A stretch of DNA of 64,000 bases from a virus: the IMG/VR virus record IMGVR_UViG_3300020463_000016, positions 1-64,000 of that record; one strand, 5' to 3'. The position numbers were made by a program, and so were the translations under genes. How positions within the stretch are numbered: the stretch's first letter is position 1; each line of letters opens with the position of its first letter. Under the pieces are notes generated by a model. The model worked only from the letters and a program-made list of their open reading frames with translations, made no database searches and had not been told where the DNA came from. Of the stretch, positions 10,705 through 54,677 are shown piece by piece.

Positions 10705-10955
10705 TATAGGATGGCAACTATGTCTCGTAGAGATATAACTTTATGTATTTCATTATTATACTCTACCTCATGACCTGCTACTTTGTCATATAATATTTTT
10801 TGCTCTGTTTGTATAGAATCAGGGCCAGAAGATATAATAATACCTTTTTTGTATCTTATTTCTTCATGCTTATCTGCTAACTCTAAACCACCTGCTGTTT
10901 TTTTATTTTTTTCAGCAATGTCTTTAATAATCAAATAATTACCTATTGCTTTCAT
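10704..10955 (-). CDS. groES: Co-chaperonin GroES (gp31-like), 83 aa
   Basis: Caps the chaperonin ring and controls release of folded substrate. From the ATG at 10953-10955 the protein begins MKAIGNYLIIKDI, the first strand of a GroES fold. A mobile-loop-like segment around residues 17-28 (KKTAGGLELADK) follows, then 'KGIIISSGPD', 'ILYDKVAGHEV' and 'VISLRDIVAIL', the last being the canonical C-terminal strand. An upstream in-frame ATG at 10982 would add nine residues but overlaps groEL by 31 bases. The internal ATG overlaps the groEL stop as ATGA, like other gene pairs here, so I prefer it. Sequence is far from cellular GroES, as with T4 gp31. Confidence 0.8.
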   Translation of the reverse strand: MKAIGNYLIIKDIAEKNKKTAGGLELADKHEEIRYKKGIIISSGPDSIQTEQKILYDKVAGHEVEYNNEIHKVISLRDIVAIL

Positions 10956-34597: not shown

Positions 34598-34635
34598 GGG
34601 GATGACGCCGTAACTGGTATCATCCCCTTTTTTTT
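34598..34635 (+). terminator. Rho-independent terminator of the rightward unit
   Basis: GGGGATGA (34598-34605) pairs with TCATCCCC (34620-34627) with an inner GCC/GGT pairing, followed by eight T (34628-34635). It lies ten bases after the last rightward stop and overlaps the stop codon of the convergent gene. On the minus strand no comparable U tract follows, so it is mainly one-directional. Confidence 0.92.
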
Positions 34636-35173
34636 ATCCACTATAATCAAATGATCCTAAATCACTTGTATTTCCTGAAGTTGGTATTGTTGAAATAGCG
34701 ATTTGTGTGCTTTGGTCATCAATTTCATTTTCTTCTTCTTCTGTTAAATCTCTAGCATCTACTGTAAATTTTTTTGTATTAGCCGTAGATAAATCATTTA
34801 ACCTTTCTGCTTCAATAGCGCTGCTTTTTGTAATGCCACGTAAAGTGTCAAATCTGGCTCTAGCTTCTTGCTTAGACCCAACAATGCCTTTCATTTCCAT
34901 TTTTTCAGCATATCTTTCTCTTTTAGCATCTGTACGCTTTTCAGATTCAGCATATCTTTCTTTTCTTCGCTTATCTCTGTTTTCTATTCTTTTCTTTTTT
35001 GCATCTGAAGCATCGTCATATCCAGCATACTTTTCGCTAAGAGTTCGCTCTCTTTCTTGCTCTTTTGTTGCTGAATTTTTTAAATCAATATCAACATTTG
35101 AAGCTTTTTCACTAATTTCATTTAATTTTTTTTTGCCTTTTTCAGACAAGCCTTTTAAAAATTTTTCAAACAT
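34634..35173 (-). CDS. Charged helical protein, end of late unit (179 aa)
   Basis: Lys/Glu/Arg-rich, probably a long helix or coiled coil (residues 1-125, e.g. 'DKRRKERYAESEKRTDAKRE'), then an acidic, Ser/Thr-rich tail. No family recognised. Last gene of the leftward late unit, just after the 2665-residue protein. May be a small ejected virion protein. Confidence 0.65.
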   Translation of the reverse strand: MFEKFLKGLSEKGKKKLNEISEKASNVDIDLKNSATKEQERERTLSEKYAGYDDASDAKKKRIENRDKRRKERYAESEKRTDAKRERYAEKMEMKGIVGSKQEARARFDTLRGITKSSAIEAERLNDLSTANTKKFTVDARDLTEEEENEIDDQSTQIAISTIPTSGNTSDLGSFDYSG

Positions 35174-35175: not shown

Positions 35176-38100
35176 TTATACTTTTATTCCGTTAGCTGAT
35201 TTTTCCCAAGGTAATTTTTTATGCCCCTCGAGGTAGGCAACGCCGTTATACATTATTTTTTTACCCTGAAGTCGTGGATATTGTTTGCCATTCCAATAAA
35301 CATTTTGATTATCATAATTTAACTTTCCAGATTTCATATCAGCTATATGCTTTTTTTCATGGGCAATAACTTCTTTCTTTTTAGCAGCTGATAAACCTTT
35401 CTTTACTTGTATAGTTCCATCTTTATGGGCCTTGCCTAAAACACCAGGTTCTAAAGCTTCTTTTTTATCAAGAGGCGAATCTTTATCGCTAAAAATTCTT
35501 TTTTTTCTAATATCTAATAAGTCTACATCTACAGAATAAGGAGACCAACCTAAACCTAATAAAACATTTTGCCAAGCATCATTATACTCGGTGCTCATTG
35601 CATTTATATTTTCTAACTTTTTAAACACCCTATCCGCGGGTATATTAAGAAGACCAGAAACATAATTAGCTTTTGCATAGTTTTGATAAAAAGGACTGTA
35701 CTTATATTGTCTCCAGTCTTGATACCTTTGAGCTTCTACAATATCACCAATCTTTTTACTAAGTGGAGGTGATATACTTAAACCTTTTTGCACAAGAGTA
35801 AGAGCACCATTGTAAACTCTTTCGCCTTTTTCTCTTTTTTGATTTTGGTCATATAATTCCATGCCAAGATTTTTAAGAGCAGCAATTGTAGCACCCGCAT
35901 AACCCATACCTCTTAGTGTACCATCAAGAACACTATTAAGTGCATAAGTTAATTTCTTTTCGTCATCTTCTGTGACTTCTTCTTCGTCATCTAAGAACAT
36001 AGAAAACAATGCACTTTGCAACGCAGTAAATATAAGGTTTTGAGCCACGCCATAATAAACTATTTTAGAAGCATTTGTTCTCCAATCACCTCTGCCATTA
36101 ACTAAATCAAGTGCAGCTTTTTTAGTTAGCCTAGCATACTGCAATGGCGTATTAGCAAATGCTAATATAAGTCTACCAATGTCTGATGCTTGCTGTCTAG
36201 AAACTTTATCAGGCCTAGAAGACTGTTGCGATTTTTCAGCAATTTCTTGGAATTCAACCATTGTTTGCTTAATAGCATCAGCCTCAGACGCACCTTCTTT
36301 AATTAATCTGTTTATATTGTTACGATACCAGCTTGCACCACCAAAAGCAATTGCAAAGCTATCGCCATACTGAGTTGGTAAAAACCCAGCTTGCAAAAGC
36401 TTTTTATGCGTTTTAGTAAACCAATTGCTTGGCTCTGAATTTGCAAGGTCTGCAGTATTTATTTCAATTTTTAGTCCGCCTCTTCTTTCAATTAAAAAAT
36501 CAGAACCAAATAATGTACTAAAATCTTTTGCAAATTGTGGTACATTAGCCATTGCTTTAGCCATCATGAAAGGATTATTAAAAGTCCAGTTCATAAAGTT
36601 AACTGCAGACAGCTGTTGTAATATAGCAGATCTAGTATTAAAAGACATAATGTTTGCAACAGAAGCATTTAACCAGTTTAAAGCCTGATTAAATTCTTTG
36701 TCTTTACCTTTCTTACGGTTAACGCCGGTTTCCATTCTTTCTAAAACATTTTCTAAAGCATCGGTAAAATCGTTGCCGTGGCGCTCTAAAATGAGTTTCA
36801 TGTTTTGATTTGAAAATATTTGGTTTTTATTTTTAATAAACTCAGTTAAAAAATCAGACCTTTGAGATTTGTTAGAAACATTAGCTAAATCAGTTTGAAT
36901 ACTACCACCTAACCAATCAGGCGTAATAGGTGGATAGCCTTCTTTTAATTTAGTTATACTAGCAAGGTCATCTGCAAAAGCCTTTAATTTAGGGTCGCCT
37001 TGAATAACACTAAGTAAATCCACAACAGCACCTTTGCTTATACCTAAATCATATCCAGCGCCATTAAAAAGATAAGCTCTAACTGCTTGTTCTTTAGTAT
37101 ACAGGCCATCAAAAACTTTTTCTTTTAAAACCTTTTTGTTTTTGTATCTTTTTCTTAAAGCTTTATAATCTCTTGCTAAAGTTACTTTTGAGGTTTCATA
37201 TGCACTTATACCTTGCGCAAACGGAGTCATTATATTATCTTGAAAAAATTTCATTTGGGCATTACCAATAGCACCTTTACCTAAAAACGTGTATAGCAAT
37301 CCTTCAAAGTCATCTGCACCCGGCGGCACATATATATTAAATCGTCTAAATATAGAACCTCTTGTAGGCTTTTTAGATCTTAATATAGTATCAAATTCAT
37401 CTTCAAGAGATTTTGTTTCTGTTTCTTTTGCTAATTGAACTTTCTTTTTAACACCAAGATCAGTTAACATTTTATCTACAGCTGCTACATTTTTAGGCGC
37501 ATCATCTGCAAAAAACAAATCATTATATCCTTCAGATACCTTTTCAGCCATCCAATAAGCTTTAGCTCCTGGAGTACCATTGCCTAATCCTGTAATATTA
37601 TTTAAAGGTATACTAATACCTAATGCTGATCTTAAAAAACTTTGTATAGATTCAGTTGCTGCTGCAGGTCTAGCAGTTAATACAAACACATCACGATCGC
37701 CTTTTGCTTCTGTTAATTTTTTAGCAAGTACAGCAAGTGGTCCTTTCCCCCCTTTTTTAACTTTATCAAACTCTGAAAAGTCAAATTGAGCACCAAGCTC
37801 TGCGAGCTCGCCAGATTGTTCTGCAAACTCTAAGGCTGACAAACTACCTTCTGTACCATCAGGAAGCAAATAAAGCACTCTAGATTTAGTTTTAGCAAGT
37901 GTATCGTCAAAGTCAAACACTCTGGCTTTCTTTTTAGGTGCTTTTTTATCCATTGCAACTGCTCTAGCCTTGCTTAAAATACCTAATCTTTTATTAATTT
38001 CATCAGTGCTTAAATTATTAACATCAGCGCCTAACTCGCGTAATAACTTTTCGCCTTCTTTTCTTATATTTTCTTGAGCAGCCAACACCCCGGCTTCGCT

Positions 38101-41100
38101 ATATATAGAAAGTCTTACTTGTGCGGGCGTTTTTTCATTAATAATTTCTCTTGTAGCAAGATTAGCAAACTCCAGCCATTCGCGCTCGGTCATGTAGCTT
38201 TTAACGTAATCGTAGCCAGCATCAATTGCTTTTGCAATATTTTTACCAGCATTGTAAGTTGCTTTAACTGCTCTTAAACCACCAACAAGTACATTCAAAC
38301 TAACGTCTTTTGCTGCTAATATCAAAAATGGGTCAATAGCAAAGCCTTTTGTTCCAGTGAGTTCTTTAAGCTTAGCTATAGCCCTGTCAATAATAAATTC
38401 AACTTTGTCGGTTTGCTCTGCAATTCCTTCTTGTTGAGCTTTTAGAACATCAGCAGTAACTTTGCCATCAAACCCAACATTAAACTCTTCTGCAACTGAT
38501 TTGCCGTTTCTAAGTATAATTGTGTTAGGATCAATACCTCCTCTTACATTGTTAACGTTTACATTAAAATACCTTGCCCATATGTTGTCGGTCATTAACC
38601 ACCCAGATGGCGTTCTTGATTTATAACTAAAACCTCTTCCATCCGGCCCTTTGCCGGCAAGTTTACTATCAAATTCTTTTAATAAAGGTCCTTGAAAAAA
38701 GTTTTTCTTAACATTTTTAAAATCTTTTTTAATATTGCCATTTATAGCGGAACTAAATAAATATTTAGCTACAGCTGAGACTGGCAAAGTGTGTTCTTCA
38801 TCAAATAATGGTTTATTATTTTCATCATACATTTTGCCTATTGCAGTAAATTTTACTGGAGACGCTTTTCTTATAAAATGACCTTGCCAAGAAGATGTAG
38901 ACTTTAATAAAGCAGCAACTAAAGCTGCATTTTCTTTATTAACATTACCATCTTTAACCATAAAGTTTTGAAAAATAGTAAAAATGTCTTCTAAAGCCAC
39001 TAATTTATTATCTTCGTTTTTAAGCCACTCTTTATTTTTAAAGTTTTCTTTTAAAGATAATTGTTTTTTGCCATTTACTAATTTGCCATAAGCGGTTTTT
39101 TGCTTTCCAATCCACGAATACGATTCTTTTTCTTCAGCAAAAGGACCGTTTTCTGCAACCCAAGCTTGCGCTTCAGCAACATTCATAAAAAATATATTGC
39201 CAGACCGAGCTCTTTCTATACTTGGTTTTGGCTTTGGCAATTTTTTATAGTCTTTCTGTAAAATTAATTTACCATTTAAAGTTTTTACGTACTCTCCTTT
39301 AAAAATTTTAGGATCAGTTGATCCATTAAAGTTTAAAAAGAAACTTGCGGGTAATAACTTAGTTAGCCCACTAGACTTTAATTTATTTAAAAATTCTTCA
39401 CGTTGAGTGTCATTATTTAAATCATAATCTTGGTGGCCAAACTCATCTGCATACTTGCTCCAATCTTTATCGTAGGCTGCAAATTCATTTTCAGAAACGT
39501 TAAAATCTTTTTGGAACGGAGACAAATTAGCTGCTACATCAGCTTTTAACTGATTTAAATCTACTATTCTATCTTGTAGGGTTTTATTGGTATTGAGTAT
39601 TTTAATTGCATGTGCTGCTGCCACGGAGATAGTCATAGCCTCTTTAAGGCTTTTTTGTCTATTAGATCTTGCTTGCTTTTTAATATTTGGATCACTAAAG
39701 TAGTTTACTAATTCAGTTTTATCTATGTTTTTAAACGCAACCTTTTCAAGTTGACCATTTTTAAATACAAGCATGCCCGCCTCTTCAAAAGGGTTTGATC
39801 CCTCTTCACCTCTAGCCATTCTCATACTTTCAACTGTTAATGTGTCATAAATAGCTTCTGCATTTTCTGCTAATTTATTATTAAAGTCTTGGCTAGTTTT
39901 AGTATTTTTGCCCATAAAGGCATCAATTGAATTACGAAATTGATTAACAAAACCTGACTTTATATCTCTTTTAAAAGACTTTGAATCTACATTATAGTTT
40001 TTAAGTAATTCTTTTTCAACAGTATTGCTATCTAACTCAATACCCAAAGCCTTTGCCGAATCAATTTTTTCTTGAGCATCTTCAACAACCATTTCTTGTT
40101 CCATGGCTTCTGAAACCGTGCCTCCAGAATCGTTTAAAAGATTGTCTAAACTAGAATCATCATCTTGTTTGATTTCTTTTGTAGCTAATCTTTGAGATCT
40201 TAAGTTTTCTCTTGTACTTATAAATTTATCTAAAGTTTGTCCTTTTGAAGGATCAAACTCATTTTCTATTAACTCTATTATTTCGTTTCCTACTAATTGC
40301 TTAAAGTTATCTCTTCCTAGCCCTTGTGTCCTATCTTTACCGGCTTTGTCGTATAGCCTTTGTGTGATATACTCTATAATAGGGGCAGCAGCTTTTAAAT
40401 ACTCATTAGTAGCTTTGCCTCTTGTACCCTCGTTTTGTATTCTTGAGCCTTTAGTTTTTGGAGTATTGGATTCTTCCATTACTCTATCATATATAGCTTG
40501 AAGCTTATTAAATTCTTTAGGAGCACTTGCTAATTTAGCTCTTTTTGCAGTGTAATTGGCCTTTGCAACATTATATAATTCGTTATATTTCTCTTGAGTA
40601 ATATTTCCGCCGTTTAATTGTGTTAATAATTCTTTACTTTTATTAACAAACTCAAGGCTAACGGCTTTAAGTCCAGTTGCATTTATATTTGTATCAACCA
40701 TTCCCATAGCGCTGGTAACAGAAAATGCTAATTGCTTTTGTCTATTTGCTATTTTAAGATCAAGCATAGCTTCCCTTTCAGGATCTTTTACGCCCTCAGC
40801 TTTTAGTTTTTGAAGATTTGTTATTTCATTGGTTAATAATTCAACTCTTTTATTTAAGTAAAAATCTTGTGTTAATCCTTTACCTTGATAATTCTCTAAT
40901 ATGCTTCTTTCTAAACTAGGCGGATCGTAGGCAGCTTCGTTAGCGGATTGAAGTATAGTATTTTTTCTTTCTGCTAATTCATTGTATTTTTCATTTAATG
41001 GTTGTAAAGCTAAATTTTTAGCGTCTTTACCACGTACATCTCCATCTATTTGCCCTGCTTCACTTCTAATTTTACCTATTTCGCCGTTAATAGTTATTAG

Positions 41101-43173
41101 CTCTTGCTTTTGTTCTTCTGTAAGATTGTCAATGTTATTTAAGTCTTTAGCTAAATATTTCATTTGCTTAGCTTTAACATCATTAACAGCATTAGCTAAA
41201 TACTCTAATTGTTTTCTATCAGCAGGATTACCTTCATTTAGTTTGCTCATTTCTTGGTTCAAGCTTTCTATAACTTGATTACCACGTGCTATTTCTAATT
41301 CAGTATCGCGAGATCTAAAAGGATTAAATACTTGTTTAAATATTAAAGGCGCTTTGAATACGCCTGCGCTCATAGCAGCTCCTGACGCAAAAGCTTCCAT
41401 TAGACCTCTGTCAAGACTTATATCTTTGTCAAGCATAAAAGCATCTACTAAATTTTCAGAGGCTTGAGCAAGAACTTCAGATCCTCCTTCTTGTACAATA
41501 TCACCAGCAACACTTTTAGCTGTTACTCCTTTAACATAATTTCTAACTGCATCTTTAAAAGAAGGTGATTTTTTAAAAGCAGATTTTAAAACGTTTAATT
41601 GATTAAATGTAACTCTTTCGCTTAAAGCCTCTGCAGTACCTACAATAGCAGGCGCAGCAAACAACTGACCTCTCGAATAAGATATTAATGGATTTTTATC
41701 CATTTCAGCCATCATTTCTGCATATTTATTACCCGCTGTAGTTGCACCCATAGCCCATAAACCGGCTGTACCGCCTGTTGCAGCCAGCGTGCCAAGTATA
41801 GGTAGTTGATTACCAACTAAATTGCCAAACCAAGTTCCAATATCGCCTAAGTCTTGAAGCTCTTCAATAGTTTTGTCTTTAGCCAAACCGCCTCTTATTT
41901 CTTCACCCATCCCAGATAATAGCTCACCTATTTTTAATCCGGACTTTTCAAAATCACCTAAATTTACATCTTCTTTAGTAATTGCATCAATGCCCCCTTC
42001 AATAGCACTAAAAACATATGCAGGTATATTTAAAAGACCACCAGTTAATTCATACGTACTAGCAATTGTTCTACCAACTATGTTTTCAACTGTCCCATAG
42101 TCTCTTCTTATTATATTATTAATTTCGTCTGCTTGATTAAGGTTTTCAATAGCCTTATTTAATTCTTTATCAGCATTTTGAAATTCTTCACTAATATAAG
42201 AAGCTTTACGGTTTACGTTTTCTTGAATAGCCTTGTATTCTTCAACGTCTTTTTGGTCTTTTAAAACTACATTGTTTAGTTTACCAACATAATCTTTTAT
42301 TTTTTTAGCCTCTTCTTGTACTACCTCGTTTTTTATTAAAGCATTTCTACTATCAAGATTTCCTATATCAGAAAGACCTTTAGCAATCTTACCTTCTTCT
42401 TTTAAAAGTTTTACTTTATTATCAGACTTTTCTGCAATATTTTCAATATTTAAATTGAATTTTTTCTTTCTTTGATCTTCAATATAGTAATTTTCTGCTA
42501 AGCTATAAATTTCGTTGTCAGAAATTACCGCGTCAGGAGCTTTATCAGCTTTTAAGTCTTCTTCCGCTTTATCTAAAAAAGATTTTTTTTCTGCGTCCGC
42601 TTCTAACAACTGGCTAGGCGAAAACTGGCCAGTTTCTGGGTCAGGCATAGCACCAAACTTAGTTGTTTTAGGACTTTCGTAATAAGCTTTAAATTTTTGT
42701 TTAGCAGCTTTTTCTTCTTCTTTACTTAATACTTGTGCTTTAGCTTCTTGCCCTGTAGAGGTTAAAAAAGGATCATCAAAATATTCATCAACAAATTTTC
42801 CTTGTTTAAATTGGTATGCAAGATACTTTTGCAAATCCTCCTCGGTTTTTATATTTAGTGATTCATCGTTAAAAAGATCTTGTTTGCTCACAATATACTC
42901 TCCTTCAAATTCAAGATTACCGGTGACCGTTCCTTTTTGTGCTTTAAATCTATATTTTTTATCAGCCTCTTTTTGTTTTTCTTCTATTTCTTTTTTTACG
43001 TCTTCGGGCTCGCGAAAATCAGGCGCAGCTACTTTGCTTATAGATGTATTTTCATTAAGCATTTCTGCTTTTTTGCTATCAATAGCAGCTTGCACTTCTT
43101 GCTGGGACTTGCCTTGGGACTCCAGTAACTGGGCTAATGCAATTAATTCTTGCCTTTGTGCTTGTGTTAGCAT
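35176..43173 (-). CDS. Giant polyvalent virion/ejection protein (2665 aa)
   Basis: Probably packaged and ejected with the DNA, by analogy with large internal proteins of podoviruses and 'polyvalent' phage proteins. Order seen: charged helical N-terminus (1-440); hydrophobic Gly/Ala segment near 447-475 ('LPILGTLAATGGTAGLWAMG'), a possible channel helix; long coiled coils (600-1100); a HAD-like phosphatase near 1750-1890 with 'RVFDFDDTLAKTKS' (both catalytic Asp), 'FVLTARP' and 'NDLFFADDAPKN'; an alpha-helical region with 'NFMNWTFNNP' near 2200; and an HExxH-type segment HEKKH near 2604 followed by 'NVYWNGKQYPR', as in zinc peptidases. No lytic transglycosylase motif seen. Roles of HAD and HEKKH are inferred from motifs. 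Confidence 0.75.
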   Translation of the reverse strand: MLTQAQRQELIALAQLLESQGKSQQEVQAAIDSKKAEMLNENTSISKVAAPDFREPEDVKKEIEEKQKEADKKYRFKAQKGTVTGNLEFEGEYIVSKQDLFNDESLNIKTEEDLQKYLAYQFKQGKFVDEYFDDPFLTSTGQEAKAQVLSKEEEKAAKQKFKAYYESPKTTKFGAMPDPETGQFSPSQLLEADAEKKSFLDKAEEDLKADKAPDAVISDNEIYSLAENYYIEDQRKKKFNLNIENIAEKSDNKVKLLKEEGKIAKGLSDIGNLDSRNALIKNEVVQEEAKKIKDYVGKLNNVVLKDQKDVEEYKAIQENVNRKASYISEEFQNADKELNKAIENLNQADEINNIIRRDYGTVENIVGRTIASTYELTGGLLNIPAYVFSAIEGGIDAITKEDVNLGDFEKSGLKIGELLSGMGEEIRGGLAKDKTIEELQDLGDIGTWFGNLVGNQLPILGTLAATGGTAGLWAMGATTAGNKYAEMMAEMDKNPLISYSRGQLFAAPAIVGTAEALSERVTFNQLNVLKSAFKKSPSFKDAVRNYVKGVTAKSVAGDIVQEGGSEVLAQASENLVDAFMLDKDISLDRGLMEAFASGAAMSAGVFKAPLIFKQVFNPFRSRDTELEIARGNQVIESLNQEMSKLNEGNPADRKQLEYLANAVNDVKAKQMKYLAKDLNNIDNLTEEQKQELITINGEIGKIRSEAGQIDGDVRGKDAKNLALQPLNEKYNELAERKNTILQSANEAAYDPPSLERSILENYQGKGLTQDFYLNKRVELLTNEITNLQKLKAEGVKDPEREAMLDLKIANRQKQLAFSVTSAMGMVDTNINATGLKAVSLEFVNKSKELLTQLNGGNITQEKYNELYNVAKANYTAKRAKLASAPKEFNKLQAIYDRVMEESNTPKTKGSRIQNEGTRGKATNEYLKAAAPIIEYITQRLYDKAGKDRTQGLGRDNFKQLVGNEIIELIENEFDPSKGQTLDKFISTRENLRSQRLATKEIKQDDDSSLDNLLNDSGGTVSEAMEQEMVVEDAQEKIDSAKALGIELDSNTVEKELLKNYNVDSKSFKRDIKSGFVNQFRNSIDAFMGKNTKTSQDFNNKLAENAEAIYDTLTVESMRMARGEEGSNPFEEAGMLVFKNGQLEKVAFKNIDKTELVNYFSDPNIKKQARSNRQKSLKEAMTISVAAAHAIKILNTNKTLQDRIVDLNQLKADVAANLSPFQKDFNVSENEFAAYDKDWSKYADEFGHQDYDLNNDTQREEFLNKLKSSGLTKLLPASFFLNFNGSTDPKIFKGEYVKTLNGKLILQKDYKKLPKPKPSIERARSGNIFFMNVAEAQAWVAENGPFAEEKESYSWIGKQKTAYGKLVNGKKQLSLKENFKNKEWLKNEDNKLVALEDIFTIFQNFMVKDGNVNKENAALVAALLKSTSSWQGHFIRKASPVKFTAIGKMYDENNKPLFDEEHTLPVSAVAKYLFSSAINGNIKKDFKNVKKNFFQGPLLKEFDSKLAGKGPDGRGFSYKSRTPSGWLMTDNIWARYFNVNVNNVRGGIDPNTIILRNGKSVAEEFNVGFDGKVTADVLKAQQEGIAEQTDKVEFIIDRAIAKLKELTGTKGFAIDPFLILAAKDVSLNVLVGGLRAVKATYNAGKNIAKAIDAGYDYVKSYMTEREWLEFANLATREIINEKTPAQVRLSIYSEAGVLAAQENIRKEGEKLLRELGADVNNLSTDEINKRLGILSKARAVAMDKKAPKKKARVFDFDDTLAKTKSRVLYLLPDGTEGSLSALEFAEQSGELAELGAQFDFSEFDKVKKGGKGPLAVLAKKLTEAKGDRDVFVLTARPAAATESIQSFLRSALGISIPLNNITGLGNGTPGAKAYWMAEKVSEGYNDLFFADDAPKNVAAVDKMLTDLGVKKKVQLAKETETKSLEDEFDTILRSKKPTRGSIFRRFNIYVPPGADDFEGLLYTFLGKGAIGNAQMKFFQDNIMTPFAQGISAYETSKVTLARDYKALRKRYKNKKVLKEKVFDGLYTKEQAVRAYLFNGAGYDLGISKGAVVDLLSVIQGDPKLKAFADDLASITKLKEGYPPITPDWLGGSIQTDLANVSNKSQRSDFLTEFIKNKNQIFSNQNMKLILERHGNDFTDALENVLERMETGVNRKKGKDKEFNQALNWLNASVANIMSFNTRSAILQQLSAVNFMNWTFNNPFMMAKAMANVPQFAKDFSTLFGSDFLIERRGGLKIEINTADLANSEPSNWFTKTHKKLLQAGFLPTQYGDSFAIAFGGASWYRNNINRLIKEGASEADAIKQTMVEFQEIAEKSQQSSRPDKVSRQQASDIGRLILAFANTPLQYARLTKKAALDLVNGRGDWRTNASKIVYYGVAQNLIFTALQSALFSMFLDDEEEVTEDDEKKLTYALNSVLDGTLRGMGYAGATIAALKNLGMELYDQNQKREKGERVYNGALTLVQKGLSISPPLSKKIGDIVEAQRYQDWRQYKYSPFYQNYAKANYVSGLLNIPADRVFKKLENINAMSTEYNDAWQNVLLGLGWSPYSVDVDLLDIRKKRIFSDKDSPLDKKEALEPGVLGKAHKDGTIQVKKGLSAAKKKEVIAHEKKHIADMKSGKLNYDNQNVYWNGKQYPRLQGKKIMYNGVAYLEGHKKLPWEKSANGIKV

Positions 43174-43177: not shown

Positions 43178-44803
43178 TTAAATTCCGTATTTATTGCTTA
43201 TATTTTTCCCTGTAAAATCTAAAGCATCTAAATAATCATCAATTGAAGGCTGACTTTTAGTAGCTTTATTTGGTATACCTAAGGCTGCAAAGTAATTTCT
43301 CATAAACTCTTTTGTATCATATAGGTCTTCTTTAGAAATGTTTATAGGTTTGCCACCGGGTACATCCATAACAAAATTATTAGGATCATCTGTAGTTTTA
43401 GAAAAACCAGCTTTAGTCTCTGTAATTTTTGCATTATTAATATTTATTCCTGTATCTTTAATTATATCTTCATAATTAAAAGACTTGTTAGTTGGACCCA
43501 TAATACTTCCCCCAAAAGTTGTTGATTTATTTATTAAACCCTGAACTCTACTTAAAAGTTCATCACTAGTCTCACCAACTTTACCCCCGTCTTTTCCAGA
43601 AGCAGCCTCTTCTTTTAATTTATTTTTTGATTTTAAAGCGTTCATTATAGCAGTTTGATCTTTAGCTAAGTTAGCTTTATCACCTAAATTATTTTGTTCT
43701 AATTCTGCAACTTTTAATTTATTAGCGGCAAGAGTTTCGCTTATCATGTCGTCAACATATTCTTGCTTTTTTTCTTCTTTTAGCGCTTTTAAGTCTTCCA
43801 TACTTGCGCCGTCTATTATTGTTGATACTTCTTCGTAACCTAGGCCGCTTTGTGTTGAATCAAGTAAATATTGCTTTAAGCCCATTCTTAAATCGCCATT
43901 ACCTAAAGAATCAAAATAACCATTAAAGCTATTTTCGCTAGCTTCTTTAAACCAAGGTTTGAGCTGCTCTTTACCATCAATTTCAACAGTTAATGGCTCA
44001 ATAGTAGATTCGTACATTGGCAGGCCTGTTGCAGGATCAGTTGTTGAAGTTACTTTTGTCATTGCAGAACCTTGTTGCGTTTCCATAACATTTGCAATAT
44101 CAGCTTGTCTTTGCTCAAAAGCTGTGCTTTCAGGGGCTGTTAATATACGCGGAAGCTGTTCAAATTTTTCTATAGCAGCCTCTATAGGTTGTTCATTGCC
44201 TTGAGAATCTGTCCATGTACCCGCTAATTGCATTTTATTATTTTTATCAAACGTGTAGCTCACATCAGCTCTACCTGTGCTCATTGCTGATAAAAATTCT
44301 ATTGTCTCAGGCTTATTAGCTAAAGATTGATTACCCTCTTCAACGCTTTCCATGTATGTAGCTATGTCTGCGTATAATATTTTTTCTGCGGCTTTATAAG
44401 CAGGTATTTGCGCTTCTAATGTCATTACAACCTTACTATAATCTGCAGCAGTTAAAGTCCCGTTATCTCTTGATATTTTAGCTTGATTTAGTCTATCAAC
44501 TAACATATTAGAAAAATCTATTCGACTATCGTTTAGTGCTCCAGCATCATCATCAGACTTTAATATAAGACCTTCTCTAGTTGCAGCATCTACTTTATCT
44601 AAAGCCAATTGATTAGCAATTTCTTTTTGCCGTGCAATAACTTTATTTGCTTCAGACTCGCGAGCTTTTTGTATACCTTGTCCAATCATAGCGCCAAACT
44701 TCATGCCAGCCGCCATATTTCTATCTATATCTGCTTCTAAATCGTATTGTGGTACATTTGTTACCTTGTAATCAAATGCTCCTAAATTTCCGTATCTACT
44801 CAT
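43178..44803 (-). CDS. Putative internal virion / ejection protein (541 aa)
   Basis: Mostly alpha-helical and acidic with Ala/Lys/Glu-rich stretches, e.g. 'ANKLKVAELEQNNLGDKANL'. I use the ATG at 44801-44803 (MSRYGNLGAFDYKV), two bases after the previous stop; a TTG six bases upstream is less likely. Position between two other candidate ejection proteins and the giant protein mirrors the internal-core genes of podoviruses. No enzyme motif. Confidence 0.65.
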   Translation of the reverse strand: MSRYGNLGAFDYKVTNVPQYDLEADIDRNMAAGMKFGAMIGQGIQKARESEANKVIARQKEIANQLALDKVDAATREGLILKSDDDAGALNDSRIDFSNMLVDRLNQAKISRDNGTLTAADYSKVVMTLEAQIPAYKAAEKILYADIATYMESVEEGNQSLANKPETIEFLSAMSTGRADVSYTFDKNNKMQLAGTWTDSQGNEQPIEAAIEKFEQLPRILTAPESTAFEQRQADIANVMETQQGSAMTKVTSTTDPATGLPMYESTIEPLTVEIDGKEQLKPWFKEASENSFNGYFDSLGNGDLRMGLKQYLLDSTQSGLGYEEVSTIIDGASMEDLKALKEEKKQEYVDDMISETLAANKLKVAELEQNNLGDKANLAKDQTAIMNALKSKNKLKEEAASGKDGGKVGETSDELLSRVQGLINKSTTFGGSIMGPTNKSFNYEDIIKDTGININNAKITETKAGFSKTTDDPNNFVMDVPGGKPINISKEDLYDTKEFMRNYFAALGIPNKATKSQPSIDDYLDALDFTGKNISNKYGI

Positions 44804-44805
44804 TA

Positions 44806-46008
44806 TCAATTTTTAAATCCCATGCTCCCCATGGCACTTGCCGCTCCAGTTGCGGCTTGGGTTAAGCCTCCTAAAAGCATACCTCTTTGTTTTTCGTACG
44901 CTGCTGACTTTTGTGCGTGTGCTTGATTAGCCATTCCTAGTTTACTAGCCAGTCTATTATATTGCATACCTTGAACGTCCATTGCCCCTTGCCTACCCAT
45001 AATGTCTGCTTGCATACCTGTTTGTGCTGCAAACTGATTAGCGGCGGTTGCTGCATTAGCATTAGCCATTTCTACGGCTTGATCCGTGCGGAATTGCTCC
45101 ATTGAAAATTGATTTTGCACTCCAGCATTAAATTGGTTCATTTGAGCCCCCTGATTAAATTCACTAAGCGAAAATTGATTAGCAGCTTGTGCACCAAACT
45201 GAGCGGCTTGATTCATTGCACCTGCATTAAATTGAGAAGCCTGATTCATTGCACCAGCGCTAAACTGGGCTGCCTGGTTAGAAGCATTGGCATTAAATTG
45301 TTCCTGCCCTAAATCAAATTGGGAGGCTGTATTACTTTGCTTTAACTGATCTCTTTGCAGCTGCATTTCGCCCTGTGCTCTTCTCATTTCATTAGCTTTA
45401 ACCTGCTGGTCTATATCTGCTGCGATCTTAGACTTTGATTTTGCAGCGGCGGCGGCTAATGCAGTTGCTCCTCCCCCACCGGTTCCAGCTTGTGCGGCTA
45501 AATCTTGGGATGCGGCCAGTGACTGGTCCGCTTCTTGCGCTGCAAGTTCAGCTCCAGCTGTCGAAACTTGTAAATTATTAAATTCATTAGTTAAACCAGT
45601 AGCGTCTCCTGTAAGAAGAGGGCCTACATTCGTGCCTTGCGCAGTATACCCTTGTGCTTCATAACCGGAAGCTTCATAACCTGTTGCCTCATTAAGTCCC
45701 GGAAGTTGAGCCGTGGCCGCACTACCAATTTTTCCTGCCTGAGCAGCAACCGGATCATAGCTAGCGCCAGTCATACCTTCAAAAGCATTTTTAAATTTAA
45801 ATGCGTCTAATTTAGCCATTGCAGCTGCTTTAGCACGTTCAGCTTTTTGTGCTGCTCTTCGTTTTCTTTTTCTGCCAAATAAAGAACCAATTCCTTTTAT
45901 AAGGCCACCTGCCGCTCCTGCTATTCCCGCAATTGCCAACGGAGGCAACCCGTAAACTAAACCCTCAATTTTAGGGCCAAAAAATAATAACTTTAAAACT
46001 TCTTCCAT
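44806..46008 (-). CDS. Putative internal virion protein with Asn/Gln/Phe repeats (400 aa)
   Basis: Start at the ATG 46006-46008 (MEEVLKLLFFG). A Gly/Ala/Ile membrane-like segment (20-43: 'PPLAIAGIAGAAGGLIKGIG') precedes a basic cluster 'GRKRKRRAAQKAERAK'. Residues 230-310 have about seven imperfect repeats of 'QF-AGAMNQAA', a helical array seen in ejection-type proteins such as T7 gp14-like and P22-type inner proteins. Likely travels into the cell envelope at infection; inference from layout. Confidence 0.7.
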   Translation of the reverse strand: MEEVLKLLFFGPKIEGLVYGLPPLAIAGIAGAAGGLIKGIGSLFGRKRKRRAAQKAERAKAAAMAKLDAFKFKNAFEGMTGASYDPVAAQAGKIGSAATAQLPGLNEATGYEASGYEAQGYTAQGTNVGPLLTGDATGLTNEFNNLQVSTAGAELAAQEADQSLAASQDLAAQAGTGGGGATALAAAAAKSKSKIAADIDQQVKANEMRRAQGEMQLQRDQLKQSNTASQFDLGQEQFNANASNQAAQFSAGAMNQASQFNAGAMNQAAQFGAQAANQFSLSEFNQGAQMNQFNAGVQNQFSMEQFRTDQAVEMANANAATAANQFAAQTGMQADIMGRQGAMDVQGMQYNRLASKLGMANQAHAQKSAAYEKQRGMLLGGLTQAATGAASAMGSMGFKN

Positions 46009-46009
46009 A

Positions 46010-46249
46010 TTATTGACTTGAATAAACTGTTTCTGAATTAAGAGCAAACAGTTCAGCTTTGTTAATTGATTTATCTACTGGTAGCTTTAAGCGAATACGC
46101 ATAAATGTACCTTTTGTTCCAGCAACAAGTTTAGTTGCATCCGCAACAACAGCGCCTCCAGAAACTTTATATGTTGTTTCTTCGGACACTATTGGTGCAA
46201 AGTATTTACCTTCTTTTTCTTTAAAAGGAAATTTTATTATTGTACTCAT
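46010..46249 (-). CDS. Small hypothetical virion protein (79 aa)
   Basis: Beta-rich, 'YFAPIVSEETTYKVSGGAVV' and 'GTFMRIRLKLPVDKSINKAE'. ATG overlaps the stop of the 1449-residue gene by one base. Perhaps a tail or neck accessory. Unrecognised. Confidence 0.65.
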   Translation of the reverse strand: MSTIIKFPFKEKEGKYFAPIVSEETTYKVSGGAVVADATKLVAGTKGTFMRIRLKLPVDKSINKAELFALNSETVYSSQ

Positions 46250-49200
46250 TATGCTTGATTTATTATTATAACTTGTTGGGCAACCGCGGATCCTGTAACC
46301 CTAGAATTTCCATAAGGATTTATTCTAACTTCCGCTGTTCTTGAAGAGCTTGTAGTATTGTTTTCTACATTTATAGTAAAAGGATAATTAGAGCCAGCAA
46401 AATTTATGCCATCAGGGTCAACAATTTTAGTTCCAGCAGAGCCATTCATTAATACCCAAGATTGAGTTGCGGATACTGCTATTGGTATTGTAGCCCCATT
46501 GGAGTTTGTTATACTTGTATTTGAGTTGCCTGAAGCATTAAATGATATTGAAGACACATAAGTCCCTACAGAAGCTGTCACTTCACCCGAACCTGTTATG
46601 GTAGCCGTTGCAGTAGTGTTTTCTGAAACAGCGGGTAAAACAATATTATATTGTAGATATTCTTGCGAAGCTCCATCAATACCGCCAGTGCCAACAGCTA
46701 CACCTGGTACATTGTATGTTAATCCGTGCCCATTAGGCAAAAATACTTTTGTCGTGCCAGAGGCAGTCCATCTTAACGCGGCTGTTCTTTTTGCAACTGC
46801 ATCATATGGACTTATTGTATATGCCGTGTTAACAGAAGTATTTACAGGTGTAGTTAATGCCCCGCTTGCTGGTGTTGCCCATGTTAATTGAGGCAATACA
46901 GTAGCAGAACCACTTATGCCTAAAGAATTATTAGTTGCAGTTGCAGGAACTGTTATCGGAAAACCAGCAATTACATTGCCATTACTAAAACTTAAGTTAA
47001 AAGGTACTATATTAGTACCTGCACCCATTCCTGAATGATTAGAACAATAATAATATAATGTAGGCGTATTTGATGCAATAACTATTTGCGTATATGCACC
47101 AGCAGACCCAGGTGTTCCATTATAAGTTACCCCAGTGGTATATTCGGTACCGCTTGCGTGAGTCCCATTTGATGTAGTACTAAATTTAAAAGGGTGTCCG
47201 CTATTAGAACTATCACTTTGATCAAATTTATAAGTTTTACCTTTAGTTAAAGTTAAAATAGGTTGTTTCAAATAGTCAATATTATTAGTCGCATCGTCTA
47301 TTGCATATTTATTTGCACCATAATTTCTAACAATTACATTTTTAGTAATAGTTGAAGCTGTAATAGCTGCCGCTTCAGTTAACCCTGTTATATTAGCCGA
47401 TATTAATCCCGGATCTATATAATGTGTGCTTATAGGAGAAACTGTAATATTTAAGTTATTTGCACCAGCTGTAGTATATGTTGCTAAAGCAGGGCTAACA
47501 TTACCGTTAGTAACGGCATCTCCTACACTTATAGTTAATAAATTAACTTCAAAAATAAGGTCAGCACCAACACCCGCTATATTTACAGTTTTTGTTTCAT
47601 TGCTTGCGCTAGCTGTATAATTTATTTTAAATACTAAATTATTATTTGTTATAGCAGAAGGGTTTGTTATACCTAAACCAGCACCCGATAACGTTATATC
47701 ATTTATACTATTAAATTCAAAATCTGCATTTTTTGGCTTTGCAGTTACTACCCATTCTATAACTTCATTTTGTTTTGCGTTAATAGTTTGTTCGCCTGTA
47801 ATTATGCTATTATTAGCTGCGCCAGAAAATTGTAAAGTTATTGCATAATAGTTTTCTAAAGCAGGTTGTACCCCAACAGAAGAAATATCTGTTTGCATAA
47901 AATCTAGCTCCCATCCGGTGCTACCTTCATAACTTACATTATTAAAAGTTTTTACAGTAGAAGGGCTGTCATTTAAAATAGGTTCTATATAAGATTCTGC
48001 CGCAGAAGCGCCATAAAATGTATTTCTATTTACACTTTCATCATTATGCTTCCATAATTTACCTGAATTAAAAGTATAATAAATATTATTTAAGCTTAAA
48101 CCTCCTTCTTGATTATAAGATTTAAAGCTTGTCCACCCCTGTGCACCTTCGTCAAAGGATATAGTAAGGTATTCGTCAACAGCAGTAGCTACATTTGTAT
48201 CTTTGTGGCCACTAAAACCTGTACCAACTAAAGTAATATTATATAAGTTGTTATATTCATCGTATGAACCAATAACCTTATTTGATTTGGCTAAAGCATC
48301 CCTAAAAAAATCGCTCATACCCATATTAGATATTTCAACTAACCCGTTTTGAGATAGTCGCATAACACTACCTCTACTTTTATCAGTAAAGTATTTTGCA
48401 TATCCATAATATGCAAAAGATTTTGGATCTTTTGATATACCAAATTCTCCTGCATAAGGCGCAATTGTACCTAAAAATTGAGTATTTGTAGTTACAGGTA
48501 TTGCACCGCCTTCTGCTGAATATATAAAGTCTTTGTTAACAGGGGATCTTGAAATTTTATCTTCTTGAAAAACAACTATTTGGGTGTCGTCGGCAAATAG
48601 CTTTTGTACAGACCCATCTTGAGGGTCTAAAGATATTGTTATGCCGCCCTCGGCTTCATTAAATTGATTTATATAATTTATATTTGTTCTTGAATTAAAC
48701 AGCCCGCTAGAATGTATTAAAGTATTAAATCTTCTTTCTTCAGCAAAGTTTTCTTTTACAACATACGCTCTAACGCCGACATCAAAAGCCCTTTCATTAA
48801 AGCCCGCTCTTAACCTATTTATTTCAATGTGCGTACCAGAAGTAAATGTTAATAAATAACAATTATAAAACTGTATGTCTATTGCTGTTGTTGTTAAAGC
48901 AGATATTAAGCCACCTGTTGATGTTTCAAAAAATATGTCTAGATCAGATTCAAAAGGCTCTGTTTCAAATACAGCCACACCTGATGTTACAGAATCCGTA
49001 GGGACATTAGCTGTGCCCGCAGGATTGTTTATAGATTGAACCTTACTTAAAGTAGCTGTTGTTTTATTAACTCCACCTAATATTTTAGGATATACCGCAA
49101 CATCACAAGGAGAAATGGTTCCGCTTGTACTAGGCGGTATAACGGCGGTTTGATCTCTTGGTATTTTGTTAATGCTGTCTCCAAATCTATTTACTACATT

Positions 49201-50598
49201 TAATGAAGTTATAGTGGAAATCCAATTGTAATATTGTTGTTCTCTTTGTTTTACAACAATTCTATAAGAATAGCACCAATCTAAAGCCTGCAATGCTGTT
49301 ATAGTCGATTGTGAAAATGCTATACGCAATGAATTAAATACACTTGTACTATTAGATTCGCCAGTTGCCGCATCAATAAAAACCGTATCTCCTCCTGTTT
49401 CAGATAATAATACAGGTGTTTGTCTTCCGAATTTATCAGCAAGAACAATACCAACCTGGTATGTTCTTCTTGATTTTACAGACATTCTGTCATCTAAAGC
49501 TGAATATCTGGCTGATGCTTCGCCTGTCCTGCTTACTGTAAACGATACTTTTGGTATATTAAAATTCTGTAAATAATTTCCATAAACCAATCTACCTCCA
49601 GCTAATTCTTGTGACTTAGCAAGTCTAGGTACTGCATCAGATACTCTTGTCAATTGATCTGAAGGCAAGGTTTTAAAAGGATCTTGAGATTTATAAAAAA
49701 AGTTTATTGAAGTTTCAGAAGTTAAAACTTTACTTTCAACAACGTATAATGCACCACTTCCTGTTTCTTTATATATTAATTCGACCTTATTGATGCCTAA
49801 GTTAGCTGGGGTAGGCACTGATAATTGAACAGATTTTATAGCATTAACAAAAGTTTCAATTTCACCAAAGTCTTCAATATTTGTAGCAATAGTATCAGCA
49901 TTATCTAGTCTTGAAAAACATATAGGTGTAAATGGAGCTAATACACTGTATTCGCCGTCTTCAAATTGATACCTATAAGAAAACCTAATTAATTTATTTT
50001 CAAGAAAATTAGAAGTAATTACGTTGCCTTGTTCATCTGAATTAGAAACACCGATTATATTTGCCGCAACGTATGGCGCATATTTAGCAACAGATATTAT
50101 ATCGTCAATGTTTGAATTTAAATCATATCTATTAGGGGTATTCCTGGCAGTTTCAACATTTATTTTTCTTGGAGGATTTCTATCATCTGTAAAGAATAAA
50201 AGCTCATCAACTAAGTTTATGCCGGTAATTAAATAATTTTGATGAAAATTTAAAGCAACACTATTAACTAAAACGGTCGCTTTATTTGCTTTTTGATTAT
50301 ATTCTATTATTTGATGACTACCGTTATTTATTTCATTGTATGAAGAATTTGTTGTAATAAAGTAATATATTCTTTCATTACCATTGTCTCTGTACTCCCC
50401 TATAACCTTTGCATTGGCTAAACTAGTATCGTTGATTAGTTTATTACCCAATATATTTTCAACAGCGCCTATATCTGAGCTTTCTGATTTGCTAACATTT
50501 ATATTTAATGCTTCTCGATATTCACCGGGCTTTAGCATTTTATCGTCTAAATCGCGATTCATTTTGCTCGCGTTAAAGAGTCTTTTAATTTCTGGCAT
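46249..50598 (-). CDS. Large tail tube/nozzle-like protein with beta C-terminus (1449 aa)
   Basis: The N-terminal ~750 residues (MPEIKRLFNASKMNRDLDDK; 'EALNINVSKSES', 'DELLFFTDDRNPPRKINVET', 'FSYRYQFEDGEYSVLAPF') match the layout of large beta-propeller-like tail tubular B/nozzle proteins of podoviruses and crAss-like phages. The C-terminal ~550 residues are Ig-like beta domains. Within them, residues about 1115-1195 form a cupredoxin-like module: 'LTKGKTYKFDQSDSSNSGHP', then 'APTLYYY'-type strand and CSNHSGMG, placing His, Cys, His and Met in the order of type-1 copper ligands. That module is frequent in marine phage tail proteins. Confidence 0.75.
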   Translation of the reverse strand: MPEIKRLFNASKMNRDLDDKMLKPGEYREALNINVSKSESSDIGAVENILGNKLINDTSLANAKVIGEYRDNGNERIYYFITTNSSYNEINNGSHQIIEYNQKANKATVLVNSVALNFHQNYLITGINLVDELLFFTDDRNPPRKINVETARNTPNRYDLNSNIDDIISVAKYAPYVAANIIGVSNSDEQGNVITSNFLENKLIRFSYRYQFEDGEYSVLAPFTPICFSRLDNADTIATNIEDFGEIETFVNAIKSVQLSVPTPANLGINKVELIYKETGSGALYVVESKVLTSETSINFFYKSQDPFKTLPSDQLTRVSDAVPRLAKSQELAGGRLVYGNYLQNFNIPKVSFTVSRTGEASARYSALDDRMSVKSRRTYQVGIVLADKFGRQTPVLLSETGGDTVFIDAATGESNSTSVFNSLRIAFSQSTITALQALDWCYSYRIVVKQREQQYYNWISTITSLNVVNRFGDSINKIPRDQTAVIPPSTSGTISPCDVAVYPKILGGVNKTTATLSKVQSINNPAGTANVPTDSVTSGVAVFETEPFESDLDIFFETSTGGLISALTTTAIDIQFYNCYLLTFTSGTHIEINRLRAGFNERAFDVGVRAYVVKENFAEERRFNTLIHSSGLFNSRTNINYINQFNEAEGGITISLDPQDGSVQKLFADDTQIVVFQEDKISRSPVNKDFIYSAEGGAIPVTTNTQFLGTIAPYAGEFGISKDPKSFAYYGYAKYFTDKSRGSVMRLSQNGLVEISNMGMSDFFRDALAKSNKVIGSYDEYNNLYNITLVGTGFSGHKDTNVATAVDEYLTISFDEGAQGWTSFKSYNQEGGLSLNNIYYTFNSGKLWKHNDESVNRNTFYGASAAESYIEPILNDSPSTVKTFNNVSYEGSTGWELDFMQTDISSVGVQPALENYYAITLQFSGAANNSIITGEQTINAKQNEVIEWVVTAKPKNADFEFNSINDITLSGAGLGITNPSAITNNNLVFKINYTASASNETKTVNIAGVGADLIFEVNLLTISVGDAVTNGNVSPALATYTTAGANNLNITVSPISTHYIDPGLISANITGLTEAAAITASTITKNVIVRNYGANKYAIDDATNNIDYLKQPILTLTKGKTYKFDQSDSSNSGHPFKFSTTSNGTHASGTEYTTGVTYNGTPGSAGAYTQIVIASNTPTLYYYCSNHSGMGAGTNIVPFNLSFSNGNVIAGFPITVPATATNNSLGISGSATVLPQLTWATPASGALTTPVNTSVNTAYTISPYDAVAKRTAALRWTASGTTKVFLPNGHGLTYNVPGVAVGTGGIDGASQEYLQYNIVLPAVSENTTATATITGSGEVTASVGTYVSSISFNASGNSNTSITNSNGATIPIAVSATQSWVLMNGSAGTKIVDPDGINFAGSNYPFTINVENNTTSSSRTAEVRINPYGNSRVTGSAVAQQVIIINQA

Positions 50599-53150: not shown

Positions 53151-54677
53151 TTATGCTTTAAATAATACAAAGTTATTAGCACCTTGTACAATCAAACATC
53201 TTTCAGATAAGTAGTGCATTCTCATTTCATCAATTGGTGATGAAGAAGCGCCTCCTACAGATCCAGTAACCCAAGACTTCATTTTTCTGTTTTCAGTCTC
53301 AGAAGCTCTATAACGTATATGTAAGAAAGGTCTCTTAATGTTTTTTCCAAGAACTTGGTCGTATACTGTTGAAGTACCAGCAGGAACTAGTACGCCTTCA
53401 ATATCTTTAAAACCACCTCTTGTAGAGAAATCATTTAGATATTTCCAATCTGTTTTATAAAAGTCATAAGAACCTCTTCTGTAACCAGTAAAGCCTAGAT
53501 TAAGAGCCATGTCTTCGCTATTGTTAAATACCCCAAAAGAAGTACCTCCAGAATATCCGCCATTTTGCTGAGCAAGAATGTCATCAATTTCTAAAGAAAG
53601 ATCTCTTCCTAAGAAAAGCATATTTTCTTCAATAGCACCTTGCTTGTCCAATTGCTTAAGAACAGCATCAAAATCAGTTAAAGCACCACCTGAAACTTGC
53701 GCTCCAAAGTCAGAGTATACATTACCTCTTGCTTCAACAGCCTCAAAAAATCCTTCAGTACCTTTAGCAGTAGCTGTAATAGCTGAATCATAAAAGTCTA
53801 AAGTAGCACCAGTGTTTAATTGTTTAACACCTTCAACCATAGACATTTCTAAGTAATCTTCCCATCGTAGTCTATTTTCGTGCTCAGATTTAAGATACCA
53901 TAAATATCCAGAAGCTCCGTTTTCAGAAGTAACTTCAATCCACCCAATTTGAGCAGTATCAGAACCGTTGATTGAATAGTGCTCTTTAAGGATAATTGGA
54001 GAATTGGTAAATGTAGCGTAGCTAGGATCTAGTTTTTCGTTAAAATTACCAGTTCCTTTTGCAAATTCAGATCCATAAGCAAGAGCTGTAAATCTTTGTG
54101 CAGTTGTAATTGCGGGAACAGCACCAAGAGATTTAACTTGGAAATATTGTCCGCTTACATTAGTTACGATACCTTTTATCATTGCTCCAGTTCCACCTAC
54201 AGCTGAAGTAGCTGAAGATTGAGCTTGAATCATTACCGTTTGTCCTTTGCGGAAATTAACGGCAGTAGTTCCTTGAGAGGTAATGCCTAAGCTTGTAGGT
54301 TGTGCAGTTGGGACAAAAAAGTTTCCAACGTTACCACCTGTAGTTACAGCATTAGCCGCTGCAGGAGTAGTTCCTGTAGTAGGCATTGTGCCAGCATTAC
54401 TTAAATAAATGATATTTGCATATCTTGTGTGCAATCTACCTTGCTCAGTCCAAATAATTTGGTCTGAAGTAGATGGCATCTCCGCTGATACCATACGAAG
54501 GAAAGAACCTATAGATCTGTTTCCATATCTTTCAACTTCTTGTTCGTATACATCAGGTAAAAATTGTTGAGCCCACTGATTAAATGAGCTATCTGTAAAA
54601 TCAATATAGTTACCAGTATAAAGAGCTTTGCTTTGAGTTGGTTGCAAAGCTGCTGGTATTCCACTTGTAAAAGCCAT
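53151..54677 (-). CDS. Major capsid protein (508 aa)
   Basis: Builds the head shell. Length, position after scaffold and portal, and a mixed alpha/beta sequence with a long N-terminal arm (MAFTSGIPAALQPTQSKALY, 'QFLPDVYEQEVERYGNRSIG') and a spine-like region 'LRWEDYLEMSMVEGVKQLNT' fit the HK97-fold capsid proteins of crAss-like and related podoviruses. A 'GGSVGGASSSPIDEMRMHYL' loop and 'SERCLIVQGANNFVLFKA' end follow. I see no protease or decoration domain. The strong terminator directly after it supports high expression. Confidence 0.85.
   Translation of the reverse strand: MAFTSGIPAALQPTQSKALYTGNYIDFTDSSFNQWAQQFLPDVYEQEVERYGNRSIGSFLRMVSAEMPSTSDQIIWTEQGRLHTRYANIIYLSNAGTMPTTGTTPAAANAVTTGGNVGNFFVPTAQPTSLGITSQGTTAVNFRKGQTVMIQAQSSATSAVGGTGAMIKGIVTNVSGQYFQVKSLGAVPAITTAQRFTALAYGSEFAKGTGNFNEKLDPSYATFTNSPIILKEHYSINGSDTAQIGWIEVTSENGASGYLWYLKSEHENRLRWEDYLEMSMVEGVKQLNTGATLDFYDSAITATAKGTEGFFEAVEARGNVYSDFGAQVSGGALTDFDAVLKQLDKQGAIEENMLFLGRDLSLEIDDILAQQNGGYSGGTSFGVFNNSEDMALNLGFTGYRRGSYDFYKTDWKYLNDFSTRGGFKDIEGVLVPAGTSTVYDQVLGKNIKRPFLHIRYRASETENRKMKSWVTGSVGGASSSPIDEMRMHYLSERCLIVQGANNFVLFKA

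What the first reader, a model, noticed from the sequence alone, without database searches (positions are those of the whole stretch)
35176..43173. 2665-residue virion protein combining a channel-like helix, HAD phosphatase and HExxH motif
A HAD domain with both catalytic Asp (DFDDT) and 'ADDAPKN' lies in the middle and an HEKKH segment at the C-terminus, both inside one giant protein transcribed with ejection-type genes. If injected, it would deliver a phosphatase and a peptidase-like domain into the cell at the first moment of infection.
Basis: partly seen in the sequence, partly recalled or inferred. Interest (0 to 1): 0.6.

Follow-up and report, generated by a model that had tools for sequence, protein, structure and literature searches.

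The report
Giant ejected phage protein, swappable enzyme
This virus of marine bacteria makes one giant protein, probably carried in the particle and pushed into the cell with the DNA, that holds a phosphatase domain with an intact active site and a small peptidase-like domain; relatives drop the phosphatase or swap it for a kinase, so it looks like exchangeable cargo rather than part of the delivery machine.

Summary
An intact 2,665-aa, 297-kDa ORF lies on the minus strand (35176-43173) near the end of a late virion-gene cluster that includes a crAss-type muzzle. The HAD domain (residues 1745-1915) is real: its catalytic residues are invariant in 31 relatives, dN/dS is 0.08-0.2, and the predicted fold matches HAD phosphatases. 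The C-terminal HEKKH belongs to a conserved module with an invariant third glutamate (HExxH...LPWE) in 50 aligned copies; it is zincin-like by sequence, but its fold is unconfirmed. The "channel-like helix" is a modest Gly/Ala-rich segment, in a module homologous to phi38:1 gp101, whose homologue phi18:3 gp123 was detected in virions by MS/MS.

The main new result is architecture. About 45 giants share a C-terminal helical module whose model matches phage polyvalent proteins. The HAD sits in a slot just before it and was gained or lost at least 5 times: absent in close relative L010, replaced by a P-loop kinase in L026-L028, and carrying a nested kinase in L024/L052. Best reading: an ejected polyvalent cargo protein with an exchangeable enzyme slot. 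Substrate, ejection and processing are inferred. A nucleic-acid end-healing role is plausible but unproven.

The parts
35176..43173 (-). Giant cargo protein gene, 2,665 aa, 297 kDa
   Evidence: Intact ORF; full-length relatives at 60-64% best-segment identity in L002 and L004
41242..41967 (-). N-terminal Gly/Ala-rich hydrophobic module, residues 403-644 (ejection-type)
   Evidence: Clade-only profile finds phi38:1 gp101 at 1.6e-21 and Panino giant at 7.6e-9, no decoys
37429..37941 (-). HAD phosphatase domain, residues 1745-1915
   Evidence: Conserved in 31 homologues; phrog_415 in 29/31; Foldseek HAD phosphatases prob up to 0.99; dN/dS 0.08-0.2
37900..37914 (-). HAD motif I DFDDT, residues 1754-1758
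   Evidence: D1754, D1756, T1758 invariant in 31
37489..37509 (-). HAD motif IV ADDAPKN, residues 1889-1895
   Evidence: D1890, D1891 and N1895 invariant in 31
35914..37341 (-). Helical module (shared chassis), residues 1945-2420
   Evidence: Found in all family members; mostly helical model; model matches viral polyvalent proteins
35179..35454 (-). Zincin-like C-terminal domain, residues 2574-2665
   Evidence: 50-sequence alignment; weak Pfam metallopeptidase matches; AlphaFold2 mean pLDDT 83, core about 90
35347..35361 (-). HEKKH, residues 2605-2609
   Evidence: H2605, E2606, H2609 invariant in 50
35203..35205 (-). E2657 of LPWE, candidate third metal ligand
   Evidence: Invariant in 50; the role as ligand is inferred
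43178..44809 (-). 543-aa protein, likely companion cargo or ejection protein
   Evidence: Position between muzzle and giant, kept in L002 and L010; no known-family match
44806..46047 (-). 413-aa protein with hydrophobic Gly/Ala-rich N-terminus, likely companion ejection protein
   Evidence: Same position in L002 and L010; no known-family match
46249..50598 (-). Muzzle-like tail protein
   Evidence: Pfam crAss_MUZ 7.9e-11, crAss_MUZ_C 2.4e-7, phrog_14478 1.6e-112
34634..35173 (-). 179-aa protein, last gene of the cluster
   Evidence: No family match; smaller genes sit in the same place in L002 and L004

Best explanation
The gene encodes a giant polyvalent-type cargo protein of a podovirus-like phage related to Cellulophaga phages phi38:1 and phi18:3. 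It is stored in the particle with the two proteins encoded before it and extruded through the tail when the muzzle opens. The N-terminal Gly/Ala-rich module helps build or enter the trans-envelope conduit. The C-terminal helical module is the common chassis of the family. The slot just before it carries an enzyme to be delivered: here a HAD phosphatase; in relatives a P-loop kinase, both, or neither. The C-terminal zincin-like domain probably cuts the chain to release parts, in the head or after entry. The most likely substrates of the slot enzymes are nucleic-acid ends or nucleotides. Shown by sequence: ORF, domains, active-site conservation, modular gain and loss, virion-cluster context. Shown for a homologue only: presence in virions. 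Inferred: ejection, processing, substrate.
For: Virion cluster with muzzle. Homology chain to phi38:1 gp101 and to phi18:3 gp123, whose record cites MS/MS. HAD motifs invariant and under purifying selection; HAD fold. HAD absent from L010 with both flanks conserved; at least 5 changes on the tree against 1 for the zincin-like domain. Kinase in the same slot or nested in the HAD. Model of HAD plus helical module matches phage polyvalent proteins. crAss001 proteins encoded after the muzzle are virion cargo (PMC10172136).
Against: No proteomics for this virus. The small neighbours do not match those of phi38:1 or phi18:3 by profile. The zincin-like fold has no significant PDB match. HAD Foldseek E-values are weak (0.07 or more) despite high probability. 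Hydrophobic segments are modest. The protein has no isolate match in whole-protein tblastn.
Confidence: 0.6

Rival explanations
1. It is mainly a structural ejection or internal-core protein (as in the T7/P22 class); the HAD and HExxH domains are passengers whose catalysis matters little.
For: The N-terminal module and gene position are ejection-type. The HAD is dispensable: L010 lacks it, as do several others.
Against: All catalytic HAD residues are invariant in 31 copies and dN/dS is 0.08-0.2; HExxH and E2657 are invariant in 50. Replacement by another enzyme in the same slot suggests selection for activity.
Confidence: 0.2
2. The ejected HAD acts on host proteins or signalling molecules (protein phosphatase or nucleotide-signal hydrolase), not on nucleic-acid ends.
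For: The best Foldseek probability is a Legionella HAD effector, Ceg4 (0.99). Kinases in the slot also match Zeta_toxin and chloramphenicol phosphotransferase families. T4 PseT aligns only over motif I.
Against: 29 of 31 HADs match phrog_415 'polynucleotide kinase', and the nested kinase matches phrog_505 'polynucleotide kinase' at 1.6e-12.
Confidence: 0.35
3. It is made in the infected cell but not packaged, or is cut before packaging so that the HAD region is left out of the particle.
For: No direct proteomics here. P1 DdrB, a polyvalent protein, is processed before packaging (PMC5512222).
Against: phi18:3 gp123, homologous in the N-terminal part and in the same position, is recorded as found in virions by MS/MS. 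The positionally similar giant cargo of crAss001 (gp47, gp49, gp50) is in virions (PMC10172136).
Confidence: 0.15

Closest known systems
Phage-type polyvalent proteins (Iyer et al. 2017, PMC5512222)
   Same: Several unrelated domains in one very large chain, encoded among late virion genes, with a zincin-like HExxH domain; the model of the HAD plus helical module matches viral proteins named ART-PolyVal, MuF-C or large polyvalent protein associated domain
   Different: Neither 'phosphatase' nor 'polynucleotide kinase' occurs in that paper's main text; no LPD or other polyvalent Pfam domain was matched; the slot swaps phosphatase and kinase
crAss001 giant virion cargo proteins gp47, gp49, gp50 (PMC10172136)
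   Same: Giant proteins encoded after the muzzle and the smaller cargo proteins; muzzle family shared
   Different: The crAss001 giants are RNA polymerase-associated; no RNA polymerase domain was matched here
N4-type virion RNA polymerase gp50 (PMC12633501)
   Same: Giant single chain ejected with two smaller ejection proteins; HExxH domain and a large helical C-terminal part
   Different: No RNA polymerase match here; HAD cargo instead; HExxH at the extreme C-terminus
Cellulophaga phage phi38:1 gp101 and phi18:3 gp123 structural proteins
   Same: Last gene of the virion cluster; homologous N-terminal module
   Different: Homology was detected only in the N-terminal module; no HAD or zincin-like profile hit in phi38:1 gp101
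T4 PseT polynucleotide kinase/phosphatase (PNKP)
   Same: HAD motif I region aligns with PseT (36 columns, prob 80%); 29/31 HADs match phrog_415; kinase partner in some relatives
   Different: Only motif I aligns; where kinase and HAD co-occur the kinase is nested inside the HAD; fused into a giant virion-cluster protein

Membership tests
HAD phosphatase superfamily | Motif I DxDx(T/V), motif II T/S, motif III K, motif IV DD in order | tested here: met
   D1754, D1756, T1758, T1833, K1871 and K1878, D1890, D1891 invariant in 31
HAD phosphatase superfamily | Rossmann-like HAD fold | tested here: met
   Foldseek to HAD phosphatases, probabilities up to 0.99, though E-values 0.07 or more
HAD phosphatase superfamily | Phosphatase activity | not testable with these tools
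   Needs enzyme assay
PNKP (polynucleotide 3'-phosphatase/5'-kinase) | Phosphatase domain of the PNKP subfamily | tested here: inconclusive
   phrog_415 in 29/31; T4 PseT only over motif I; no PNKP among PDB profile hits or the 50 PDB fold hits listed
PNKP (polynucleotide 3'-phosphatase/5'-kinase) | Linked P-loop polynucleotide kinase | tested here: not met
   No kinase in the window's protein; present only in relatives L024, L052 and L026-L028
Zincin metallopeptidases | HExxH plus a downstream third ligand | tested here: met
   H2605, E2606, H2609 and E2657 invariant in 50 copies; ligand role of E2657 is inferred
Zincin metallopeptidases | Zincin fold | tested here: inconclusive
   No significant PDB match; IrrE at prob 0.16, 37 columns; weak Pfam M78 and DUF6782 matches in many members
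Phage polyvalent proteins | Two or more disparate domains in one chain | tested here: met
   HAD, helical and zincin-like modules in one ORF
Phage polyvalent proteins | Encoded among late virion genes | tested here: met
Phage polyvalent proteins | Shared polyvalent-associated domains | tested here: inconclusive
   Foldseek matches to viral polyvalent proteins, but no LPD domain in Pfam
Phage polyvalent proteins | Injected into the host with the DNA | not testable with these tools
   Needs infection experiments
crAss-type or N4-type virion RNA polymerase giants | RNA polymerase domain | tested here: not met
   No RNA polymerase match in Pfam, PHROGs or PDB sequences

The most novel reading that the evidence does not exclude
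The slot before the helical module delivers nucleic-acid end-healing enzymes from the virion: a HAD 3'-phosphatase here, a PNK-like kinase in relatives, or a kinase nested within the phosphatase. These would repair tRNA or DNA ends cut by host defences (anticodon nucleases, restriction) at the moment of entry, before any phage gene is expressed, with the C-terminal zincin-like domain freeing the enzyme from the ejected chain.
Probability: 0.25. Interest if true: 0.75.

Novelty: new variant of a known kind. Interest (0 to 1): 0.5.

Why it matters
Giant ejected phage proteins are known mainly as RNA polymerases or as polyvalent proteins with other enzyme domains. Here a family of uncultured, largely marine phages shows one conserved chassis and a slot in which phosphatase and kinase cargo come, go, swap and nest. 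That gives a natural comparison for what the first protein delivered into a cell is selected to do, and makes virion-delivered repair or counter-defence testable with HAD-plus, HAD-minus and kinase relatives.

Tried and rejected
Whole-protein tblastn against isolate phages found nothing at E<=1e-5; the HAD alone found nothing at E<=1. Pfam, PHROGs and PDB searches of the whole protein gave only weak HAD and C-terminal hits; relatives were needed to raise them. PDB profile searches with the HAD and zincin-like alignments found no convincing relative. DFDDT as an RNA polymerase metal-binding loop was considered and rejected because LTAR, the lysine and ADD follow in HAD order. The 413- and 543-aa neighbours did not match the phi38:1/phi18:3 neighbours by profile; their role rests on position. 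elemoE gp18 matches by BLASTP but does not appear in the independent profile tests, so it is not used as virion evidence. Bacterial genomes gave no helical-module relative. The original Cellulophaga phage proteomics paper (doi 10.1073/pnas.1305956110) is not in the library, so the MS/MS claim rests on the record's own note. Transporter-like Foldseek hits of the helical module have low probability and were discarded.

Full report
What is there. The window is part of a 68,037-bp virus record. The gene at 35176-43173 is an intact 2,665-aa frame on the minus strand. It is the second-last gene of a minus-strand virion cluster: terminase 58359-60587 (phrog_6681, 8e-169), portal 55933-58356 (phrog_6547, 1e-133), capsid-like protein 53151-54677 (phrog_13704, 3e-94), two further virion structural proteins, a muzzle-like protein 46249-50598 (Pfam crAss_MUZ, 7.9e-11), then 413-aa, 543-aa, 2,665-aa and 179-aa genes. 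The nearest isolate relatives by capsid and terminase are Caudoviricetes MW202828, Maribacter Panino, Flavobacterium elemo phages and Cellulophaga phages. In each one examined the virion cluster ends with a giant gene.

Virion evidence. A profile of residues about 396-650 built only from the window's own clade finds phi38:1 gp101 at E=1.6e-21 and the Panino giant at 7.6e-9, and no shuffled or reversed decoy. phi38:1 gp101 in turn finds phi18:3 gp123 at 8.5e-14 in a small test set (tblastn against all phages 5e-4). The phi18:3 record states that gp123 is a structural protein by experimental MS/MS proteomics. So packaging of this protein class is supported by a chain of homology, not shown for this virus. 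In crAss001, proteins encoded after the muzzle (gp45, gp46, gp47, gp49, gp50) are virion cargo (PMC10172136).

HAD domain. Residues 1745-1915 carry DFDDT, LTAR, invariant lysines and ADD in HAD order. The catalytic positions are invariant in 31 homologues. Of these, 29 match phrog_415 'polynucleotide kinase' (best 1.2e-10), 25 match DUF2608, and 11 and 9 match Pfam Hydrolase and HAD weakly. The AlphaFold2 model (HAD plus helical module, mean pLDDT 72) matches HAD phosphatases in the PDB with probabilities up to 0.99, although E-values are 0.07 or higher. Pairwise dN/dS is 0.08-0.2. Membership of the PNKP subfamily is suggestive only: T4 PseT aligns over motif I alone (the window's terminase as control gives 0.6% probability).

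Zincin-like domain. Residues 2574-2665 align with 49 other copies; H2605, E2606, H2609 and E2657 (of LPWE) never vary. A scan found 440 relatives in viral contigs, of which 80 were kept; those outside the giants are mostly small proteins under 150 aa. Individual members weakly match DUF6782 putative metallopeptidase (31/50) and Peptidase_M78 (29/50). The model is confident (core pLDDT about 90), but Foldseek gives no significant PDB match; IrrE, an HExxH protein, appears at low probability. The domain is zincin-like by sequence; fold and activity remain open. dN/dS is 0.07-0.16.

The family and its slot. The helical module (residues 1945-2420) was found in 26 viral loci by its own scan, and in about 45 after adding the HAD and zincin-like scans. 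Those two scans were aimed at the domains, so overall frequencies are biased; in the helical-module scan alone, 7 of 26 loci lack the HAD. The orthologue L010 is conserved on both sides but has no HAD at all. On the tree of the helical module the HAD label needs 7 changes, at least 5 forced by strongly supported branches, whereas the C-terminal domain needs one (some long branches make exact placement unsure). L026, L027 and L028 have a P-loop kinase just before the helical module (L026: Pfam Zeta_toxin 1.6e-14, AAA_33 3.8e-14; slot sequences). In L024 and L052 a similar kinase (AAA_33 1.3e-15, phrog_505 polynucleotide kinase 1.6e-12) is inserted right after HAD motif I. L060 and L064 carry the HAD far upstream. 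The HAD is therefore exchangeable cargo. The model containing the helical module matches many phage proteins named ART-PolyVal, MuF-C or large polyvalent protein associated domain, which places the giant beside phage polyvalent proteins (PMC5512222), although no LPD domain was matched by sequence.

How it probably works. By analogy with crAss001 cargo and N4 gp50 (PMC10172136, PMC12633501) the chain is stored in the head or tail and extruded through the tail. The small companion proteins and the N-terminal module would form or join the envelope conduit; the helical module would be the common chassis; the slot enzyme would act in the cell; and the C-terminal domain would cut the chain, as proposed for metallopeptidase domains of polyvalent proteins. 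Only the sequence facts are shown. Alternation of phosphatase and kinase in one slot hints at nucleic-acid end or nucleotide chemistry, since these are the two activities of PNKP enzymes, but a signalling phosphatase is not excluded.

Verdict. Its interpretation is partly supported, and novelty at the level of motifs is modest. The exchangeable-slot architecture is the more interesting result.

Noticed in passing
L024:2927-11935 (residues about 1988-2188) and L052:1041-8861: A P-loop kinase (GGPGAGKT; AAA_33/Zeta_toxin) is nested inside the HAD directly after motif I, at the cap position; an unusual domain-in-domain arrangement.
   Followed up: partly
L016:4202-12280 (residues about 1641-1776): A different insert of about 135 aa at the same site in the HAD, so the cap site looks like an insertion hotspot.
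   Followed up: no
L060:954-8426 and L064:933-8426: The HAD lies about 720 residues upstream of its usual slot: domain shuffling within the giant.
   Followed up: partly
L011:6692-7873, L012:2132-3652, L066-L132: The zincin-like domain recurs as small, mostly stand-alone proteins in many viral contigs; function unknown.
   Followed up: partly
window 10704-12535: GroEL-like (10952-12535) and GroES-like (10704-10982) reading frames in the phage genome; related phages also annotate GroEL and GroES genes. Recognised by eye, not by a family search.
   Followed up: no
L008:19247-20650 (phi38:1 gp030): Relative phi38:1 is annotated with an RtcB-type tRNA splicing ligase, an RNA-repair enzyme that could bear on the end-healing idea.
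   Followed up: no
window 427-9746 and 62534-64000: Several long fibre-like proteins (1,460 aa, 707 aa, and a 1,243-aa gene running past the window's end) on the minus strand.
   Followed up: no
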